Shown here: piece after piece, positions 1,548-36,484 of the stretch
Layout of the letters: each line of letters opens with the position of its first letter
Position numbering within the stretch: position 1 is the stretch's first letter
Program-made: the position numbers and the translations under genes
The notes under the pieces: model-generated
Seen by the model: the letters and a program-made list of their open reading frames with translations, nothing else
What the model was told of the DNA's origin: nothing
Database searches by the model: none
Source of the DNA: an uncultured archaeon
GTDB lineage: Archaea; Thermoproteota; EX4484-205; JAAOZP01
Length of the DNA: 64,000 nucleotides
Assembly: GCA_938045545.1 (NCBI GenBank)
Contig: CALIBN010000008.1
Span: forward strand, 1 to 64,000
Direction: 5' to 3'

Positions 1548-2528
1548 ATGGTTGGAGCTGCACAAAAACTTGGTTTAAACAAGACGCCGAGTGGACATAT
1601 TGGGGAAAGAGCTCCTGAGCCCTTTGTAAAATGGGCCGGGGGGAAATCGCAGCTCCTCAAAGTTTTCAGCATGCTTTACCCAAGGAGGTTTAAAACATAC
1701 TATGAGCCTTTTCTGGGCGGTGGAGCCGTTTTCTTCGACCTTTACGCTAAGTGTAAGATAAGCAGAGCAGTCCTATCCGACTTGAACGCTGACCTGATGA
1801 ACCTGTGGGCAGCCATCAGGGAGAACGTCGACGAGCTGATCAGTCAGCTGGAGGCTCTCAGGAGGAAGGTGAACGACCGGGCTTTCTACTATGAGAAGAG
1901 AAAGGAGTTCAACTCGATCAAGCTCCGCGAGAATTTTCTCGACGAGCCGGATATTCGTAAAGCCAGCCTGCTGATATTCTTGAACAAGACTTGTTACAAC
2001 GGGCTTTACAGGGTTAATGCGAAGGGAGAGTTCAACGTTCCCTTCGGAAGATACAGGAATCCTCAATTGTTCGACGAGGCGAACCTAAGGGCTGTGCACC
2101 AAGCTCTGAAAGACAGGGATAGAATAAGGCTGCTCTGCACGGATTTCCAAGATGCTGTAAAGGATGCTGAGAAGGGAGACTTCATATATTTCGACCCGCC
2201 TTACCAGCCTCTTGGGAAAACGGCGAATTTCACAGAGTATACTGCAGGCGGCTTCGGTCCAGATGAGCAGAAAAGACTGGCCGAAGTCTTCAGAAACAGG
2301 GACGAGCGCGGCTGCCTCCTCATGCTGAGCAATTCTAGCAAAAGGGAGTTTCTCGAACCCCTCTACAAGCCCTATTTTGAAAAAGGCTATGTTTTAGAAG
2401 TTAAGGCTGCCAGGGCAATCAGCAGCATAGGCAGCAAGCGTGGTCCTGTGAAGGAATTTGTAATAATGAACTACGCCCCTAACCGTGACCAAAACCTCAG
2501 CCGCTTTTTAAGAACCGAAATAGATTAG
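1548..2528 (+). CDS. Dam/DpnIIA-like DNA adenine-N6 methyltransferase (D12 class)
   Basis: 326-aa alpha-class N6-adenine methyltransferase. Near the N-terminus PFVKWAGGKSQLL and YEPFLGGGAVFF form the S-adenosylmethionine site; FIYFDPPYQPL is the catalytic DPPY motif. Length and motif order match Dam and M.DpnII. It would methylate adenine, most likely in GATC, and protect the host from the divergent DpnII-like nuclease. ATG at 1548 is the first good start. Followed by a second methylase after about 100 bp. Confidence 0.92.
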   Translation: MVGAAQKLGLNKTPSGHIGERAPEPFVKWAGGKSQLLKVFSMLYPRRFKTYYEPFLGGGAVFFDLYAKCKISRAVLSDLNADLMNLWAAIRENVDELISQLEALRRKVNDRAFYYEKRKEFNSIKLRENFLDEPDIRKASLLIFLNKTCYNGLYRVNAKGEFNVPFGRYRNPQLFDEANLRAVHQALKDRDRIRLLCTDFQDAVKDAEKGDFIYFDPPYQPLGKTANFTEYTAGGFGPDEQKRLAEVFRNRDERGCLLMLSNSSKREFLEPLYKPYFEKGYVLEVKAARAISSIGSKRGPVKEFVIMNYAPNRDQNLSRFLRTEID

Positions 2529-2624
2529 GAGGAAACTTAAGCAAGCCGTAGGAAGCTTTTGCCGATTAAGCATTCCTAATATTTGTGGTTAAAAGGCAAT
2601 CAACCATAATTTTATTCGGAAAAA

Positions 2625-3611
2625 TTGTTAAATTTAAGTGAAGATGATGAAGCATACATAGTAGACTTGGTGAGAAAGAGAAAGGAGAAACAGGTTTCCA
2701 AGTATATCGTTATGCAAGAGTTTAAAAAAGAGGATTATCTACAATTCATCAAAAATCATAGCTCTGTAGTAATCGAGGATACTCGGGTTCCCTTAAGGAA
2801 AAAATGGAGAATCAAGACTTTCACCCCTCCCGATGCTTATATTCCTGAAAGGGAAACAGTCTGGAGCTTCCCGGACAGGGGAGACTGGGCTACGCACGTC
2901 GGCGACTACAGAGGGAACTGGTCGCCCTACATTCCGAGAAACCTGATTCTGAAATACACCGAAAAGGGAGATACTGTCCTAGACCAGATGGTGGGGAGTG
3001 GAACAACGCTGGTTGAATGCAAACTATTAGGTAGAAACGCTATCGGCATAGATATAAACCCCAACGCGTTAATAGTGACTCACGACAGGCTTAACTTTCA
3101 GTATAGACCGTTAACCGGGGAATACACGGAGCCGGAGATACGGGTTTACCTGGGTGACGCCCGGAACCTGGATAAAATCCCTGATGACTCAATAGACTTG
3201 GTGGCGACCCACCCTCCTTACGCGCATATTGTTTCATACTCGAAATCACGCGTTGAAGGCGATCTTTCAGCGCTATCGTTTGAAGACTATTTAAGGGAAA
3301 TGGGCGTGGTTGCGAAGGAAGCCTACAGGGTTCTTAAGCCCGGAAAACACTGTGCCATACTGATAGGCGATACGCGGAAGCATAAGCACTACGTGCCCAT
3401 ATCCTTCAGAGTGATGCAGAAATTCTTGGAAGCAGGATTTATACTTAAGGAAGACATTATCAAGCAGCAGTGGAACACGAAGACAACGAGGGAGAAATGG
3501 AGGAAGGCGGTTTATGATTTCTACCTGATAGCACACGAGCATCTGTACGTTTTCAGGAAACCCTCGAAAAAAGAGGAGCTTAGAAAATTTAAATTGAGCA
3601 CAGCATGGTGA
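2625..3611 (+). CDS. N4-cytosine/N6-adenine DNA methyltransferase
   Basis: 328-aa SAM-dependent DNA methylase of the COG0863 type. The SAM motif DQMVGSGTT (about residue 120) precedes the catalytic motif THPPY (about residue 190), so the order is SAM site then catalysis. SPPY-like motifs are commoner in N4-cytosine enzymes, but the target base cannot be fixed by eye. The start is TTG; the next in-frame ATG is about 87 bp on and would remove part of the N-terminus. Eight bases separate it from the 188-aa gene, so the two are probably co-transcribed. It may form a second restriction-modification unit rather than be a DpnA-like helper. Confidence 0.82.
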   Translation: MLNLSEDDEAYIVDLVRKRKEKQVSKYIVMQEFKKEDYLQFIKNHSSVVIEDTRVPLRKKWRIKTFTPPDAYIPERETVWSFPDRGDWATHVGDYRGNWSPYIPRNLILKYTEKGDTVLDQMVGSGTTLVECKLLGRNAIGIDINPNALIVTHDRLNFQYRPLTGEYTEPEIRVYLGDARNLDKIPDDSIDLVATHPPYAHIVSYSKSRVEGDLSALSFEDYLREMGVVAKEAYRVLKPGKHCAILIGDTRKHKHYVPISFRVMQKFLEAGFILKEDIIKQQWNTKTTREKWRKAVYDFYLIAHEHLYVFRKPSKKEELRKFKLSTAW

Positions 3612-3618
3612 TGAAAAA

Positions 3619-4185
3619 GTGTTCAGAAAAGTAAAAGTCGGAGATATGGTAAGAGAAGGCAGTGAAAGAAAAAGAGTTCTGGAAATTGTAGAGTTGTCGA
3701 ACGGTTGGCAAGTAGTTAAGACTGAAAACAAGAAGTCTCCCCGTGACTTTAAGGTTAAGATAATTAACCCTAAACACCCGCAAGGCCTAACCATCAAGCA
3801 CGCTCATTTCGCTATCGACTTATACGGGAAGCTTTGCCAGAATAGAGAAAAGGCCCTCAAGGTTCTAGAGGCAATCAGCAAAGTTTGGCAGGGCGTAAAC
3901 GTGAGAGAAGTATTGGATAAGTATGAGCCCTATACCCGTGGTCTAGTCGGGTATAGTTTAGAGTATATCCTCTACTCGTTAAACTGGATTTTAGAGCAGG
4001 AGGATGTTAACTTCACTGGACGACCACCTAATAAGCAGAAAGAGCTGGATGAAAAAATAGAAAGGCAGGGGATTAAAACTCCAGAGGGAAGACTGGGCAG
4101 CCAATTAGCAGTCGCACTTCTCTGCGATATTGCGAGCGGGGTCCACCCGGTAGAAGCCTTCTATGGTGCTGGATTAAAAATATGA
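3619..4185 (+). CDS. Unknown 188-aa protein coupled to the N4/N6 methylase
   Basis: Starts at GTG 8 bp after the methylase stop. The N-terminal 55 residues look like a small beta-rich domain (KVKVGDMV, VVKTENKK) and the remainder is helical, with a conserved-looking stretch VNFTGRPPNKQKELDE. I do not recognise the family and see no clear PD-(D/E)XK, HNH or GIY-YIG nuclease motif. Its position suggests a cognate restriction enzyme or a specificity/accessory subunit; this is inference from context only. Confidence 0.7.
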   Translation: MFRKVKVGDMVREGSERKRVLEIVELSNGWQVVKTENKKSPRDFKVKIINPKHPQGLTIKHAHFAIDLYGKLCQNREKALKVLEAISKVWQGVNVREVLDKYEPYTRGLVGYSLEYILYSLNWILEQEDVNFTGRPPNKQKELDEKIERQGIKTPEGRLGSQLAVALLCDIASGVHPVEAFYGAGLKI

Positions 4186-4189
4186 TTTT

Positions 4190-4700
4190 TAAGCCGGATA
4201 AGCGCGGGCCAATATTCTCATCTATAAAAACCAAAACCACAATCATTATATAAGCTTTTACATCCTTTCTAACCCCGTCAAATACTTTAAGAGCATGTTC
4301 TTCAACAATCTTCCTGTCCTTCTCAAGGATTACCGTGTTCGGTGACCTTTCTGCTATAAAGTACTGAGATAAAGAGGCTCACTCTTATTCATGCTCTCTA
4401 ATCATGATTCTTTTAACATCCTTATACACCATGAGGCATTGGGACAACCATGATGGAACGAGTTTAAGCGCGCCCAGATTTTATCTTTTCGAATTGTCGA
4501 TTTGACCTCAATTACTATGAGCTCATTCTTTACTGTTATGACAACTATATCTACTTTTTCGTTCATGCCATAAACTCGGCGTTCAAACAGTATATCTTTC
4601 ACTTCCTTTCCGAATATCTCGCCTTTTCCCTCCTCAACTGGATCAGAGGAGACGCTTGCAATAGCAATTTTTGAGAGTTGTAGAGAAAATTTGAGTTATT
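4190..4700 (-). pseudogene. Broken PD-(D/E)XK nuclease-like gene (DUF3782 type)
   Basis: The middle part (4402-4700) reads VDIVVITVKNELIVIEVKS, with the D...ExK spacing of PD-(D/E)XK nuclease folds seen in archaeal DUF3782-like proteins. It opens with an in-frame stop just upstream and no good start. Downstream, another frame continues with protein-like sequence (FIAERSPNTVILEKDRK, about 4240-4360) that could be its displaced C-terminus. I read this as one decayed gene with at least one frameshift. The family assignment is moderate; the decay is clear. Confidence 0.5.
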
Positions 4701-31340: not shown

Positions 31341-33545
31341 TCAGGATACTATTACTTCCTCCTTTCTGCGAAGCCTGTATAAGAGCAGCGCTGCAATCAC
31401 TATGCTTCCAACGGATAGTGCTGCCGCAACCATGTTCAAACCTGTTTTAAGAGGAGTTGTTGTCCCGCCGGGTTTCACCGTGATGGTGATGCCTTTTCCG
31501 AAGGTCGGCTGGACTATGGAGTAGCTTAAAGCTTCGCTCCTCTCGCCAAGGCTGCTAGCCATAGAATAGTCTACTTCAACCCTTATCTGAGAGCCTTTAG
31601 AGAAGAGTAGGCTAACTTCCTGCCCGTTCCAGAGGGTTAGGATATTGCCATCGTCGTAAAACCTGAACTGCTCTATGACTACGCTGTTTCCCGAAACCAG
31701 TATCCCCATCGGGCTAAGGTTTGCAGAGTACCTGGAGCCGTTTAAAACGACTCCCTCGAAACTACCGTTGTAACTTACCTTGACGCGTCTAACCCCGATT
31801 CTGGTTTCGTTCGCTAAAACCACCCTGTTTAACACTAGAAAACCGTCTTCAACCGCCTCAGGTTTGAAAATAATACTCGCCCCGTTTAAAACCTCTGGGG
31901 CAAGAAGGCTAGTTCTGGCCTCGCTATAATCTATAAGCCGGAGGATCAGGGTCAGCTCATCGTAAACGTTCATCAGGGACGTCATGTTCTCGCTTAGGCT
32001 TTTTTGAACACTCTCTAAACCTGAGGAGACGTTTTCAAGCATCGGGGTGACGCTGGTCAGATTGCTCCCCATCATCATGTTTGCCTCGCCGATAAGCTTT
32101 AAAGCTGAGCCCATCTCGGCTAGCGCTGACGATGTTTGTGACAATGCTGAGGCACCTAAGCCTAGGCCTGAGCTCATCTCTACAATTCTGGAGCCATATT
32201 CCTCCAGCGTGTTTATGAAGGATTCTAGGCTTTCGAACAGATGGTCCAGTTGAGGCCCGGCTGATTCGAAATAGCTTTCAGCGAGGCTTAAGCGGCTGTA
32301 CAGATTGTTTATCCTCCGTGTGGCGTTTTCCAAGAGGCTTATCTGGTCAGGGTTAGTCAAATTGTTTCTGACCGCCGTTAAAGTATTGTTAATCTCCAAG
32401 AGGCCCTGTTTCGCGTCTACAATCATCCTGTAGGTTTCGTTTAGGATTAGGCCGGCTGCCTGTCGAGAGGAGTTCAACCCTTTCCTAAGCCTGTTGAAAT
32501 CCACTTTGGAAACGTTTTCAGCGATCGCGGAGAATAGTGAAGCCGCCTGGGAAAGCTGGGATGCTGCCGAGCTGAGTCCAAAGCCTATTGCTTTCAATGC
32601 TTCACCGATCATAATGGTTTGATTACCAGTTGTCTCCAAGCCGTAGCTCAGGTTTCCAAGCATATTCTTCATCAGGTTAATGAAACCAGTAAGGTTACCG
32701 ATGGGTGTCAGAATCATATTCATCATGCGGATCGACGTGTTCAACCCGTTCAACTGTGAACGTATAGACTCTCTAACGGATTCTCCAATCGGGGAGGAGG
32801 AGATCGATATCGTGGTCAACGGGATGGTGCCCCAGTCGTCAAACCCGTCTACAACCGCTTCAACTCTGATCTCCGCCTCCCCCCTCAGTATGAGCATCCA
32901 TGAAACCGAATCCTTTTCAAAGGGGCTAGTCATGTTTGCGGGAGGGTTGAAAACAATATTTCTAAAATATTTTTGAGGAATATTCATCGTCATGGAGACG
33001 AACACCGGGGGTTTTGAAGAAGCGTTCGTCAACGGGTCTAGGAGAACCGGATTATTGTTCTTGAGCCTTACCACCCATTCTGCAGAATCGCCCTCCTTGC
33101 ATTTTACGAAGAACACTCCGTATGCTGAACTATAGTTCGGCACCGCTCCGTTTACCCTTAGGCTTGCTTCAACAGTGAGTGGAAGCCAAAGAGACTTGCC
33201 GCTAAGCTCGAAGATTCTTGTACCCGGCTTAGCCTGAACATTCCATTCAATAACGCATGAGTCTCCTGAATAACTTAGGAGACGTGCCTCCGGGGGCAAT
33301 ACTAGGCTTGAAGAATCAACTCCGGATAGCCTTTGAGTGAAACGGTACTGGATGGTTGACTGACCCGTGTTTTTAACCGTCACTGTTGATTTGAATTCCG
33401 TCGTCGAGTTACCGATCAACGGGTTTAGATCTAGGAAATAGGTGATGTTTTCGCTTACAGTGACTCGGGTTTCCTCCGGGGAGGCTTGGGTCGCCAAGGG
33501 CAGCATCAGCATCAGTATTAGGAGAAAGGCTTGGGCGCGTCTCAT
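31341..33545 (-). CDS. Surface coiled-coil protein linked to an ABC exporter
   Basis: 734 aa. Signal peptide (FLLILMLMLPLATQA), a beta-rich N-terminal half with many N-x-S/T sites, a long helical coiled-coil region (about 255-545: repeated segments such as LMKNMLGNLSYGLETTG, RLRKGLNSSRQAAG, LLENATRRINNLYSRLSLAE), another beta region, and one C-terminal transmembrane helix (AAALSVGSIVIAALLLYRL). It overlaps the ABC ATPase by 4 nt (ATGA), so the three genes form one operon. The family is not recognised. Its layout suggests an extracytoplasmic partner of the transporter, comparable in position to MacA in bacteria; that role is inferred. Confidence 0.75.
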   Translation of the reverse strand: MRRAQAFLLILMLMLPLATQASPEETRVTVSENITYFLDLNPLIGNSTTEFKSTVTVKNTGQSTIQYRFTQRLSGVDSSSLVLPPEARLLSYSGDSCVIEWNVQAKPGTRIFELSGKSLWLPLTVEASLRVNGAVPNYSSAYGVFFVKCKEGDSAEWVVRLKNNNPVLLDPLTNASSKPPVFVSMTMNIPQKYFRNIVFNPPANMTSPFEKDSVSWMLILRGEAEIRVEAVVDGFDDWGTIPLTTISISSSPIGESVRESIRSQLNGLNTSIRMMNMILTPIGNLTGFINLMKNMLGNLSYGLETTGNQTIMIGEALKAIGFGLSSAASQLSQAASLFSAIAENVSKVDFNRLRKGLNSSRQAAGLILNETYRMIVDAKQGLLEINNTLTAVRNNLTNPDQISLLENATRRINNLYSRLSLAESYFESAGPQLDHLFESLESFINTLEEYGSRIVEMSSGLGLGASALSQTSSALAEMGSALKLIGEANMMMGSNLTSVTPMLENVSSGLESVQKSLSENMTSLMNVYDELTLILRLIDYSEARTSLLAPEVLNGASIIFKPEAVEDGFLVLNRVVLANETRIGVRRVKVSYNGSFEGVVLNGSRYSANLSPMGILVSGNSVVIEQFRFYDDGNILTLWNGQEVSLLFSKGSQIRVEVDYSMASSLGERSEALSYSIVQPTFGKGITITVKPGGTTTPLKTGLNMVAAALSVGSIVIAALLLYRLRRKEEVIVS

Positions 33546-34420
33546 TGTTTCACCATCAGCTCCTTCTCCTCTATGGATTTTAAAGCTCTCTCATAGGTTT
33601 CCCCGGATATAACCTTGTTTTTGAAAAGCCTTTCAACGTTCTCCCTCTCCAGTTTTAAAAGGTCTAGTTGAACCTGCTTCTTAAGCCTTGTCGACTCCTC
33701 GTCCATGGGAATGCCTTCCAGGAAGCTTCTGGGGGCTTCCTCGAATACTTGGCCATCCTTCATAAACAGGATCCTGTTAGTAACCCGGGCCAGCTCCACG
33801 TTATGAGTTACAATGATAATCGTGTTTCCAAAACTGTTCAGGAGCCTGAAGGTTGCTATTATTTCTGTTGATGAAGCGACGTCCAGGTTGCCCGTGGGCT
33901 CGTCTGCAAGAATGTAGGCAGGATTATTAGCGAGGGCTCTCGCAATAGCCACTTTCTGCTGCTGGCCTCCGCTAAGCCTGCTAGGAGGGTTTCTCAACCT
34001 GTCTTCAGGGAAGCCGACAAGCTTCAGCAAGTAGAGAGCCTTAAGCCTAGCCTCCTTGAAAGAGTATCTTTTAGAAAGGAGCATCGGGAGCATCACGTTC
34101 TCCACGGCTGAAAGGTTTCTGAGAAGGTTGAAGAACTGGAAGACGAAGCCTATCTTGTTCTTCCTGAAAATGGATAGCTGGCTCTCGCTGAGCTTAGTCA
34201 CATCGACACCGTCAACCAGAACCCTTCCCGAGGTGGGCCTATCCAGGGTTCCAGCTATATGGAGCAGTGTTGACTTTCCTGAGCCAGAGGGCCCGACGAT
34301 AGACACGAAATCCCCCCTCCGGATTGTGAGCGAAACGTTCTTCAAAGCCTTCACCTCTATGTCTCTACCCATAACGTAGGTTTTAGAAACATCTATGCAT
34401 TCTAAGGCTGGGCTACTCAT
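33542..34420 (-). CDS. MacB/LolD-type ABC transporter ATP-binding protein
   Basis: 292 aa. Walker A GPSGSGKST, Q-loop FVFQFFNLLRNLSAVENVML, signature LSGGQQQKVAIARAL, Walker B ILADEPTGNLD, and switch His in IIIVTHNVE. The extra C-terminal 60 residues form a helical pair not present in LolD. Overlaps the permease by 8 nt and the surface protein by 4 nt. Confidence 0.92.
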   Translation of the reverse strand: MSSPALECIDVSKTYVMGRDIEVKALKNVSLTIRRGDFVSIVGPSGSGKSTLLHIAGTLDRPTSGRVLVDGVDVTKLSESQLSIFRKNKIGFVFQFFNLLRNLSAVENVMLPMLLSKRYSFKEARLKALYLLKLVGFPEDRLRNPPSRLSGGQQQKVAIARALANNPAYILADEPTGNLDVASSTEIIATFRLLNSFGNTIIIVTHNVELARVTNRILFMKDGQVFEEAPRSFLEGIPMDEESTRLKKQVQLDLLKLERENVERLFKNKVISGETYERALKSIEEKELMVKQ

Positions 34421-35579
34421 ATCTTAAAGCCTCCACGGGCCTTATCCTGGAAGCGTTCCATGAAGGGAGCAGGCTGCTCAGGAAGCTAGCCGCAACTGCG
34501 ATCATGAGACCGTTTAAAACAGGCTCATAGCTGATTATGAAAGGTAGGCTTATCTGGAACCTGAAGACCCTGGGGAGCAGGTAAGTAACAATAACGTAGC
34601 CCAAGCCCATGCCGAGGGCTGACCCGAATAATCCTCCTGAAATGCCGAGCAGGATCCCCTCGACCAGAAAAATGTAGAGGACCTGCAGGGGTGACGCGCC
34701 TATAGACTTCAAAACCCCTATCTCCCTTATCTTCTCCCTTATGCTCATCGTGATGGTGTTCATGGTTCCAACGCCTGCCACGATTATGCTTATGGCGCTT
34801 ATAGTGAATATTACTGCGTCTATCGTGTCCAGAATAGCCTGGCTCTGCTTCAGAACATCCTCCTCGGTTGAGACTGAGAGGCTAGGGTAAGTAGACCTTA
34901 TAGCATTGACAACGCTGCTCATGACGCTTGAATTATAAACTCTAACGAGGATCATGTCTGCAAGCCCCCTCTTGTTCAGAATCCTCTCCCCCTGCTCAAG
35001 GCTCATTACGACAACCGAGGCTGGACCCGCCAGCGCAGCTTGGAAGAGCCCGCCGATCTCCGAAAGCCCCGTAACCTTGAAGGACACTCCTTCCTGCACG
35101 TATGAAGTCACGATCCTCACGGTCGAGTTGACCGAAACACCTAGTTTCTTAGCCGACTCCTCGGGCATCAAGCATTCTCTAGCGTTTGGAGAGGAAACTC
35201 CTGAGCCGCTTACGATCGTCTGGAATGCTTTTATCTCCTCCACCGGCACAGCTAGTATGAACGCGTTGCTAGACTCCACTAGGCCTGAGCCGATTATGAC
35301 TGGAACAGCCCTTTCAACGCCGGTGATGTTGCTTATCAGGTGGACAACGTAGATCGACATGGGCTCGCTGTTCCTTGTCCTCACTATTATCGACGACCCT
35401 AGTAAAGTGTTTATCTCGCTCTCAACCCTTGCGCGCATACCGAGTGAAACTATGAAGAGCGAGACAAGCGAGGCTATGCCTATCGAAATACCTAATATAG
35501 TAAGGCCTGCTCTGAGCTTTTTACTCGCGATATCCCTGAGCGCGTAGCGCGTCAAGTATAGGAGAGTGATCATCTTCAT
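34413..35579 (-). CDS. MacB/FtsX-type ABC transporter permease
   Basis: 388 aa. First transmembrane helix AGLTILGISIGIASLVSLFI, a MacB-type periplasmic core domain (about 50-245), then three C-terminal helices of the FtsX fold, starting with FTISAISIIVAGVGTMNTITM and SIREKIREIGVLKSIGASP (the typical coupling helix). First gene of a three-gene operon; TATA-like AATATTTATC lies near 35600-35609. Such systems act by mechanotransmission rather than by moving a substrate through the membrane. Confidence 0.92.
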   Translation of the reverse strand: MKMITLLYLTRYALRDIASKKLRAGLTILGISIGIASLVSLFIVSLGMRARVESEINTLLGSSIIVRTRNSEPMSIYVVHLISNITGVERAVPVIIGSGLVESSNAFILAVPVEEIKAFQTIVSGSGVSSPNARECLMPEESAKKLGVSVNSTVRIVTSYVQEGVSFKVTGLSEIGGLFQAALAGPASVVVMSLEQGERILNKRGLADMILVRVYNSSVMSSVVNAIRSTYPSLSVSTEEDVLKQSQAILDTIDAVIFTISAISIIVAGVGTMNTITMSIREKIREIGVLKSIGASPLQVLYIFLVEGILLGISGGLFGSALGMGLGYVIVTYLLPRVFRFQISLPFIISYEPVLNGLMIAVAASFLSSLLPSWNASRIRPVEALRYE

Positions 35580-35615: not shown

Positions 35616-36446
35616 TTATAATGCTGCGGTGAAAACATATATCATGATGCCGAGAATGCCCGCTATAAGGTTTGAGACAAGGTTTACAACATGGTTGTCA
35701 AAGCCCTTAAACCCTTTCACTAAAACGTATTCCCCCTGCTTCCCGGGCTTTTCACGAAGCCTGCCGTCAGTCTTAGACACGTATGCCTCTTGAACGGTTG
35801 CTCCAAGCAGGCTGTCTACAATCATCCCTAGGAAACCGCCGGCTGAGCACGCTACAAATAGGCCTAGAGCATCACCGACCCCGGAAATGATGCCTGGAGC
35901 ATTAGCCTGCCGGAGTGCCACCGAGACCAACGCTATCACAATTGCTCCTGAAAGCCCTGCGAAAGTGCCCAGCAGGGTGACTCCTCCAGAAACCCCTTTC
36001 TCAACACTCCTCCTAAGGTTTGTTATAAGCCTAGGCTTAGAGCTGCTTAACAGTCCCAGTTCAGTGGCCAGCGTGTCTGCCGCAGCCGAGCAAACTGTGG
36101 TGGTGAAGAAGACGAGAAATATCTCCATCCGGAAAAAATGCTCAAGCATGATGGACATTGCCGCGGGCCCACCGTTTGCGAGAACGTTAACCCAGCTTCT
36201 AACCCCACCCTTCTCCTGGGCCAAAGCATCCAGCTCCTTGTCTTTACGCCTATACTTCGTGGAGGCGACGCCCAAGACTAGGAACGCCAGCATTATTATG
36301 AAGCAATCCCAGCCCCCTAGGAAGAGCACTATTACCCCTAGGAAAATAGAGGCTAGGACCCCGGAAAAGCTTAGGGAGCGCGAGACATATGTTGCTACCG
36401 CCAGCATGACTATCGCGAGCGTTTTAACCAGGGTTTCGGCAATCAT
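35616..36446 (-). CDS. DUF92 family membrane protein
   Basis: 276 aa with about seven transmembrane helices and family features: FLGGWDCFIIMLAFLVLG, then a basic loop, ADTLATELGLLSSSKPRLIT, GVSGGVTLLGTFAG, FLGMIVDSLLGATVQ. Plant relatives (VTE6) phosphorylate phytyl phosphate, so a prenyl-phosphate kinase role is possible but unproven here. Start: ATG at 36446 is preferred to TTG 36449; GCTTAAATAG (minus, 36475-36484) lies about 30 bp upstream. Confidence 0.85.
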   Translation of the reverse strand: MIAETLVKTLAIVMLAVATYVSRSLSFSGVLASIFLGVIVLFLGGWDCFIIMLAFLVLGVASTKYRRKDKELDALAQEKGGVRSWVNVLANGGPAAMSIMLEHFFRMEIFLVFFTTTVCSAAADTLATELGLLSSSKPRLITNLRRSVEKGVSGGVTLLGTFAGLSGAIVIALVSVALRQANAPGIISGVGDALGLFVACSAGGFLGMIVDSLLGATVQEAYVSKTDGRLREKPGKQGEYVLVKGFKGFDNHVVNLVSNLIAGILGIMIYVFTAAL

Positions 36447-36484
36447 CAAAAGCTGGATGACTCTTCTTAAAGGGCTATTTAAGC

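What the first reader, a model, noticed from the sequence alone, without database searches (positions are those of the whole stretch)
31341..35579. MacB-like exporter with a dedicated surface coiled-coil protein
Permease, ATPase and a 734-aa protein overlap by a few bases. The last is anchored at its C-terminus and carries a roughly 290-residue coiled coil outside. Bacterial MacB works with MacA and TolC; an archaeal cell has no outer membrane, so this protein could be an alternative extracytoplasmic lever or tether in a mechanotransmitting system.
Basis: partly seen in the sequence, partly recalled or inferred. Interest (0 to 1): 0.55.

Follow-up and report, generated by a model that had tools for sequence, protein, structure and literature searches.

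The report
Archaeal MacB-type motor with hairpin partner
In a hot-spring archaeon, an ATP-driven membrane machine of the MacB type comes with its own long surface protein, probably hairpin-shaped, and the same trio recurs in many related archaea, which points to an envelope machine that seems undescribed and whose cargo is unknown.

Summary
On the minus strand a 388-aa permease (FtsX + MacB_PCD), a 292-aa LolD/MacB-class ATPase and a 734-aa secreted, C-terminally anchored protein overlap by 8 and 4 bases. The host is close to a Brockarchaeota MAG. The third protein matches no Pfam family over its cut-off. AlphaFold2 (pLDDT 68) gives a beta-domain, a 289-residue helical region best read as an antiparallel hairpin (arms 141 and 145 residues), a second beta-domain and a membrane helix; a 22%-identical homologue gives the same break at lower confidence. 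I found the protein in 64 of 398 genomes of the phylum, in 15 families. The ATPase gene is adjacent in 61 of 64, the permease in 43 of 64; elsewhere the permease lies at another place or across a contig break, and it was not seen in one incomplete genome. In 26 of 64 an MmpL/RND gene stands beside the cassette. So it is a dedicated partner of a Type VII (MacB-superfamily) ABC motor, without a sequence match to MacA. Lever, conduit or tether, and the cargo, stay inferred. New variant of a known kind.

The parts
34413..35579 (-). Type VII (MacB-superfamily) ABC permease, 388 aa: FtsX C-terminal domain and MacB_PCD ectodomain
   Evidence: PF02687 E 2e-21, PF12704 E 5e-15; PDB relatives LolC, LolE, MacB, YtrF, LolF; orthologue set A4
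33542..34420 (-). ABC ATPase, 292 aa, LolD/MacB/FtsE class; overlaps the permease gene by 8 bases
   Evidence: (LolD TIGR02211 E 7e-70, below its equivalog cut-off)
31341..33545 (-). Hairpin surface protein, 734 aa; overlaps the ATPase gene by 4 bases
   Evidence: homologues in 64 of 398 genomes of the phylum
33480..33545 (-). signal-peptide-like N-terminus (residues 1-22)
   Evidence: Sequence; helix 2-14
32793..33464 (-). N-terminal beta-domain (residues 28-251), with a W-G-T-I motif (238-241) near its end
   Evidence: 10-residue pLDDT means 56-88, mostly 70-88; alignments; resembles the AP-complex mu homology domain
31917..32783 (-). helical region read as a hairpin (residues 255-543)
   Evidence: heptad periodicity (Z 10-14 to chemoreceptor, SMC, EnvC and MmpL5 coiled coils)
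32352..32360 (-). predicted hairpin tip (residues 396-398, in ..NNLTNPDQ..)
   Evidence: Helix break; same break at 393-396 of the 22%-identical homologue L042
31560..31868 (-). C-terminal beta-domain (residues 560-662)
   Evidence: 10-residue pLDDT means 68-86 to residue 660
31365..31448 (-). C-terminal membrane helix (residues 700-727), short basic tail
   Evidence: sequence

Best explanation
The three genes encode one Type VII ABC machine. A permease dimer and an ATPase dimer convert ATP binding and hydrolysis into movements of the permease ectodomain on the outer face of the membrane. The third protein is the dedicated extracytoplasmic partner that receives those movements. It is held beside the permease by its C-terminal membrane helix and beta-domains, and it carries the stroke, or the extracted molecule, along a hairpin of about 140 residues per arm, roughly 21 nm by helix rise, towards the S-layer. 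Shown: gene order, protein families, conserved co-occurrence. Predicted: hairpin and topology. Inferred: dimers, physical complex, mechanotransmission, reach to the S-layer, and handling of a hydrophobic envelope molecule (suggested only by the MmpL neighbour in two families).
For: Overlapping genes in the order permease-ATPase-hairpin protein. Partner gene found in 64 of 398 genomes: ATPase gene adjacent in 61 of 64, permease adjacent in 43 of 64. In the 18 genomes of family f24 that have the hairpin protein, the ATPase gene is beside the hairpin gene in 17 (the 18th is a contig break) while the permease sits elsewhere in the genome in 18 of 18; in the 8 of 18 read it has no ATPase gene near it. 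So the parts persist although the operon broke. The 61 genomes with a permease match at E <= 1e-75, and 2 more with a broken copy, have the hairpin protein in 63 of 63. AlphaFold2 helix break and near-equal arms in two homologues 22% identical. In the Type VII superfamily the partner protein defines the function (PMC12646458, passages).
Against: No complex was predicted or measured. The hairpin models are of modest confidence (mean pLDDT 68 and 55; the five models of the first run ranged from 54 to 68), come from nearly the same nine sequences, and no coordinates were seen: the chain path is read from helix breaks and structural alignments. In G358 the hairpin gene is unlinked, and in G140 no ATPase gene lies beside it. 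S-layer dimensions of Brockarchaeota are unknown to me. No substrate evidence in the window's own lineage: no MMPL match in any of the 12 listed genomes of the genus and order. The 1e-75 cut-off for the permease was my choice; weaker matches in other genomes were not listed.
Confidence: 0.6

Rival explanations
1. It works as a MacA-like conduit: several hairpin proteins form a ring or funnel on the permease and channel an exported lipid, peptide or other amphiphile through the quasi-periplasm, in some archaea in series with an MmpL transporter.
For: Same plan as periplasmic adaptors in outline: hairpin set between beta-domains, membrane anchor, gene beside the transporter. MmpL gene divergent from the cassette in 26 of 64 genomes. 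Adaptors without an outer membrane exist in Gram-positives (PMC5985334).
Against: No lipoyl or HlyD/MacA family match; anchor at the C-terminus, not the N-terminus; oligomer state unknown; no MmpL in the window's lineage.
Confidence: 0.22
2. It is an envelope signalling device like FtsEX-EnvC: the motor moves the hairpin to switch on a surface enzyme (S-layer protease, glycosidase or lipid hydrolase) encoded elsewhere.
For: EnvC in the FtsEX-EnvC complex aligns to residues 253-524 with the lowest rmsd of the 50 rows shown (8tzl_E, Z 10.4, rmsd 2.7 over 166). FtsX-family hits of the permease.
Against: I saw no enzyme gene linked across families, though neighbours were not annotated systematically; Z near 10 is common for helical bundles by the tool's own note; the permease has a full MacB_PCD match, whereas the FtsX described lacks a significant Sabre subdomain (PMC5985334).
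Confidence: 0.12
3. It is an S-layer stalk or tether (SlaB-like) whose attachment is regulated by the ABC motor.
For: Secreted, beta-rich, coiled, C-terminal membrane anchor, 22 sequons, broadly as in SlaB (PMC10903991, passages). Some coil-only matches fall on long secreted-looking proteins, such as L155 beside a 1311-aa frame.
Against: SlaB is described with a 132-residue C-terminal helix that forms a trimeric coil and enters the membrane, not a hairpin with a beta-domain after it. I saw no SlaA-like gene beside the cassette, but neighbours were not tested for it. Tight linkage to a motor does not suggest a structural lattice protein.
Confidence: 0.1
4. The third gene is an unrelated surface protein that is only co-transcribed.
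For: Unlinked in G358; gene orientation differs (convergent) in G008 and G011.
Against: Co-occurrence is kept where linkage to the permease is lost (18 of 18 f24 genomes) and adjacency is kept where orientation changed.
Confidence: 0.03

Closest known systems
MacAB / YknXYZ / SpMacAB (MacB-family transporters with hairpin adaptors)
   Same: Type VII permease and ATPase with a gene-linked, membrane-anchored, extracytoplasmic protein that carries a helical hairpin and beta-domains; Gram-positive versions lack an outer membrane.
   Different: No match to HlyD/MacA families or a lipoyl domain; anchor at the C-terminus; hairpin arms about 140 residues each; ATPase not fused to the permease, as it is in E. 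coli MacB.
FtsEX-EnvC
   Same: Type VII motor plus a coiled-coil partner (8tzl_E aligns).
   Different: EnvC regulates peptidoglycan amidases and, recalled, is soluble with a LytM domain; this protein is membrane-anchored with two beta-domains.
LolCDE
   Same: Best NCBIfam matches of permease (TIGR02212 E 6e-29) and ATPase (TIGR02211 E 7e-70). The archaeal ATPase MJ0796 is also described as LolD-like (PMC8277102, passage).
   Different: Both matches are far below the equivalog cut-offs; no outer membrane is expected; a LolA-like partner was not searched for.
YbbAP-TesA
   Same: Type VII motor whose partner defines function; extraction of hydrophobic molecules from the membrane (PMC12646458).
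   Different: Partner is a hydrolase; YbbAP has 10 transmembrane helices.
SlaB S-layer stalk of Sulfolobus
   Same: Secreted, beta-domains, coil, C-terminal membrane anchor.
   Different: C-terminal helix in a trimeric coil that enters the membrane; a lattice protein.
NEW3/CARDB surface protein between ATPase and permease genes (genus g41: L087, L143, L147-L149)
   Same: Surface protein encoded in a cassette with a related ATPase and permease, with a C-terminal hydrophobic segment in four of the five.
   Different: NEW3/CARDB domains in the one scanned (L148), no hairpin region apparent to me in L087, gene order ATPase-protein-permease; a separate family.

Membership tests
Type VII ABC (MacB superfamily) transporter | Permease with FtsX domain and MacB-type periplasmic core domain | tested here: met
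   PF02687 76.6 bits (cut-off 25.5), PF12704 56.7 bits (cut-off 27), nearly full profile lengths
Type VII ABC (MacB superfamily) transporter | Four membrane helices with a roughly 200-residue ectodomain between helices 1 and 2 | tested here: inconclusive
   Hydropathy of orthologues shows segments near 35, 265, 312 and 355, but many show an extra or split peak; PF12704 covers 25-229. Window permease not modelled.
Type VII ABC (MacB superfamily) transporter | ATPase of the MacB/LolD/FtsE class | tested here: met
   LolD, MacB and FtsE among the 25 best of 196 matches, all below their equivalog cut-offs
Type VII ABC (MacB superfamily) transporter | Mechanotransmission without transport across the membrane | not testable with these tools
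   Needs biochemistry or structures
MacA/HlyD periplasmic adaptor | Lipoyl/HlyD-type family match | tested here: not met
   no such family listed at E <= 1 for the 734-aa protein. This is a sequence test; a diverged lipoyl fold is not excluded.
MacA/HlyD periplasmic adaptor | Helical hairpin between beta-domains | tested here: inconclusive
   Predicted only: helix breaks and flanking strands (pLDDT 68; pLDDT 55); coordinates not seen
MacA/HlyD periplasmic adaptor | N-terminal membrane or lipid anchor | tested here: not met
   Signal-peptide-like N-terminus and C-terminal helix 700-727; cleavage not tested, so an uncleaved N-terminal helix is not excluded
FtsEX-EnvC | LytM (peptidase M23) domain in the partner | tested here: not met
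   No such Pfam match at E <= 1; that EnvC has it is recalled
SlaB S-layer stalk | C-terminal helix running directly into the membrane anchor | tested here: not met
   Predicted helices to 543, then strands 560-662 and helix 700-727
LolCDE | Equivalog match of permease and ATPase | tested here: not met
   101 bits (cut-off 362) and 235 bits (cut-off 308)
AP-complex mu homology domain | Double beta-sandwich fold of the N-terminal domain | tested here: inconclusive
   Z about 9.3-10.0, rmsd about 4.5 over about 200 residues, 11-12% identity; the domain was not folded alone

The most novel reading that the evidence does not exclude
An undescribed archaeal envelope-spanning machine: a Type VII ABC motor drives a non-MacA hairpin adaptor whose arms (about 21 nm) plus beta-domains match the depth of the quasi-periplasmic space (25 nm in Thermoproteus), so that the S-layer plays the part that TolC or the outer membrane plays in bacteria. 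In two families it works together with an MmpL transporter to move lipids or other amphiphiles to the cell surface.
Probability: 0.25. Interest if true: 0.75.

Novelty: new variant of a known kind. Interest (0 to 1): 0.52.

Why it matters
Type VII ABC motors are well known in bacteria, where the extracytoplasmic partner sets the function. For archaea, which lack peptidoglycan and mostly an outer membrane, my searches (open-access library, listings only) turned up no described partner. A partner family kept with its motor across 15 archaeal families, even where the operon has broken up, gives a concrete, testable system for how archaea do ATP-powered work outside the membrane and across the S-layer space. 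If the hairpin is confirmed, it also suggests that the hairpin-adaptor solution can arise outside the MacA/HlyD family.

Tried and rejected
Coil similarity as homology: weak matches of the coil to MCE, Rad50, SMC and others were not used. MCE proteins recur (E 0.004 in the window, 0.002 in L073, 2e-7 in L071) but only over a coil.

Coil-only hits: of 73 genomes at E <= 1e-10, nine (G261, G293, G213, G313, G160, G217, G076, G112, G100) match over the coil alone (or nearly so) and were dropped; in three of these nine the locus was read (L154-L156) and no permease or ATPase match stands beside the hit. Weaker coil matches were dropped too; three were read (L082, L085, L086) and have no transporter match beside them. 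I dropped them for lacking the N-terminal domain, but had seen their neighbourhoods when I did so. If they counted as homologues, they would be cases without the transporter.

Profile make-up: the rows of A3 were picked after the neighbourhoods were seen. It wrongly included L087, a NEW3/CARDB-type protein matching only at the anchor, and drew in four relatives of genus g41. I rebuilt the profile without it and dropped all five genomes of that genus (64 to 59). Of these 59, 22 are rows of the profile and match by construction. L088 (f24) entered by a weak match (E 6e-5) with the right architecture. One search added five f24 genomes that one search had missed (59 to 64).

The Fisher test (p 2e-58) used the table before those five were found and ignores phylogeny, so I do not rely on it.

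Fold search: Tc-toxin, clathrin-adaptor, chemoreceptor and SMC matches were taken as shared arrangements, not relatives. No MacA/HlyD chain is among the 50 rows shown in either call; this excludes nothing.

Papers: in eight searches no title or abstract opening listed describes this trio; the listed papers were not read, except passages found by word in seven. 'archaea' does not occur in the main text of PMC5985334, PMC12646458 or PMC4446572; PMC8277102 (first 300,000 characters held) has four mentions, none of this trio; the Brockarchaeota paper PMC8065059 has no mention of MacB, ABC transporter or S-layer.

Not reached: distribution outside the phylum (the one genome-contig scan, used a single peptide pattern and found 8 close relatives), complex prediction, permease model, systematic annotation of neighbours.
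Full report
What is there. The window comes from a genome close to Candidatus Brockarchaeota: the nearest named record, MAG GD2_1, carries the 734-aa protein at 95% identity. On the minus strand the order is permease (35579-34413), ATPase (34420-33542), third protein (33545-31341), with overlaps of 8 and 4 bases. The permease matches FtsX and MacB_PCD over nearly the whole profiles; its solved relatives are LolC, LolE, MacB, YtrF and LolF. The ATPase is of the LolD/MacB/FtsE class but below the equivalog cut-offs among the 25 of 196 matches shown. The third protein has no Pfam family over its cut-off and no PDB sequence match at E <= 1.

Anatomy of the third protein. AlphaFold2 with nine sequences gave pLDDT 68, pTM 0.44 for the best of five models (54 to 68): a signal-peptide-like helix, strands 28-251, helices 255-346, 350-395 and 399-543, strands 560-662, a low-confidence linker, helix 700-727. 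I read the helices as a hairpin: a kink near 348, a tip at 396-398, arms of 141 and 145 residues. Coordinates were not shown, so this path rests on the helix breaks and on structural alignments. The homologue L042, 22% identical, modelled from the same sequences in another order, breaks at 393-396, with helices within 251-392 and 397-537 (142 and 141 residues); its hairpin base is of very low confidence (pLDDT about 30, with further breaks), the part around its tip 64-73. Structural alignment pairs residues 253-546 with chemoreceptor, SMC, EnvC and MmpL5 coiled coils at Z 10-14, which the tool warns is common for long helices. A W-G-T-I motif lies near the end of the first beta-domain, and by my reading a short strand with a conserved proline (P680, nearly invariant in A3) precedes the anchor in most members. 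In several families the protein is shorter (about 580-620 aa), and that strand seems to be all that remains after the coil. The protein has 22 sequons. The beta-domain resembles the mu homology domain of clathrin adaptors; I treat this as a lead only.

Conservation. In 101 genomes (the window's and 100 relatives), 11 had a match, and in all 11 the ATPase gene is adjacent; the permease is there in 10 of 11, the other (G001) having a contig cut inside the ATPase gene. In G008 and G011 the third gene is convergent with the pair but still adjacent. A profile search of 398 genomes of the phylum gave 73 at E <= 1e-10. After dropping 9 coil-only matches and 5 NEW3/CARDB proteins, 59 genomes remained, 22 of them rows of the profile; a closer query added 5. 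Of these 64, the ATPase gene is adjacent in 61 (55, two of these across split frames; G245; 5); the others are G146 (contig break, the ATPase at one end and the hairpin gene at another), G140 (permease directly upstream, no ATPase match) and G358 (unlinked). The permease is adjacent in 43 (42, G245); G354 is probably a 44th, split over two contigs. In 18 genomes, all of family f24, the permease lies elsewhere (11, 7). In the 8 of those 18 that were read it has no ATPase match in the stretch (7, 1), while the ATPase sits with the hairpin gene in 17 of 18 and across a contig break in G146. G358 has a permease-ATPase pair elsewhere. G001 shows no permease; it is 70% complete. In the reverse direction, the 61 genomes with a permease match at E <= 1e-75, plus two with a broken copy (G366, G397), carry the hairpin protein in 63 of 63. 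That cut-off was my choice, and weaker permease matches in other genomes were not listed. A4 was built from permeases taken beside hairpin genes, but no f24 permease was in it, so those are independent finds. Related genomes are not independent events; the count by families is 15.

Neighbours. In 26 of 64 genomes (16 of f13, 10 of f24) an MmpL gene is divergent from the cassette (24, G366 and G374), with two more likely across contig breaks (G354, G146). PF03176 identifies it (for L077, for L125). MMPL occurs in 103 of 398 genomes and in none of the 12 listed genomes of the window's genus and order. In five loci (L023, L072-L075) a secreted-looking protein of about 500 aa stands upstream of the permease; in the one scanned (L073) it has an Ig-like match and a CARDB match just under cut-off. 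In six genus genomes, the window's included, a gene of the same length and place as the window's DUF92 gene precedes the permease (window Pfam match). These hint at envelope lipids but prove nothing.

How it most likely works. Type VII motors perform work outside the membrane by mechanotransmission, and the partner sets the function (PMC12646458 and PMC5985334, passages). The hairpin protein has what such a partner needs: export signal, anchor, beta-domains, a long lever, and a gene overlapping that of the motor. I infer that the ATPase cycle moves the permease ectodomains, which act on the beta-domains and hairpin. The hairpin length, about 140 residues at 0.15 nm (recalled), is 21 nm; Thermoproteus has a 25 nm space below its S-layer (PMC5744192, passages) and the Sulfolobus S-layer is about 30-35 nm thick (PMC10903991, passages). 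For Brockarchaeota the figure is not known to me.

Comparison. It may work like a MacA- or EnvC-type system; [quoted passage not shown] its partner is not a MacA/HlyD member by sequence match or by anchor position, not EnvC, and not SlaB by predicted architecture. Eight paper searches listed no title or abstract opening that describes it, in an open-access library only. Verdict: new variant of a known kind, with the interaction, the stroke and the cargo unproven.

Noticed in passing
L200:1638-6152 (+), L199:2035-6609 (+); own genome contigs C7 and C29: Giant FtsX-type permeases of about 1500 aa with an M28 peptidase match in front, in 2 of 3 scanned (the 990-aa one in L202 has none): a Type VII permease and a hydrolase in one chain, reminiscent of YbbAP-TesA. 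In one search, 10 FtsX matches were found in this genome, 7 of them in open frames of 1000 aa or more.
   Followed up: partly
L201:936-2339 (-), beside 2332-3609 and 3611-4297 (own genome C7): A second MacB-type permease-ATPase pair of the same genome adjoins a 468-aa membrane protein with a rhomboid protease domain (PF01694 E 1e-31).
   Followed up: no
window 35616-36449 (-): DUF92 membrane protein 36 bases upstream of the permease gene; the same order appears in six genus genomes by gene length and position. DUF92 includes an isoprenoid-phosphate kinase in plants (recalled), which may hint at lipids.
   Followed up: partly
L023, L072, L073, L074, L075 (upstream of the permease): Secreted-looking protein of about 500 aa (Ig-like match in L073) as a possible fourth member of the operon in several families.
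   Followed up: no
L071:3471-4565 (G358): The one unlinked hairpin gene follows a gene for an M50 (site-2 protease-like) peptidase.
   Followed up: no
window residues 22-250 of the 734-aa protein (32796-33482, -): The predicted fold resembles the mu homology domain of AP clathrin adaptors (Foldseek E 5e-6, Z about 10), odd for an extracellular archaeal protein.
   Followed up: no
L129, L130, L120, L122 (G366, G374, G386, G397): In several f24 MAGs the ATPase, hairpin or MmpL genes appear as split ORFs at this locus; sequencing errors or real decay not distinguished.
   Followed up: no
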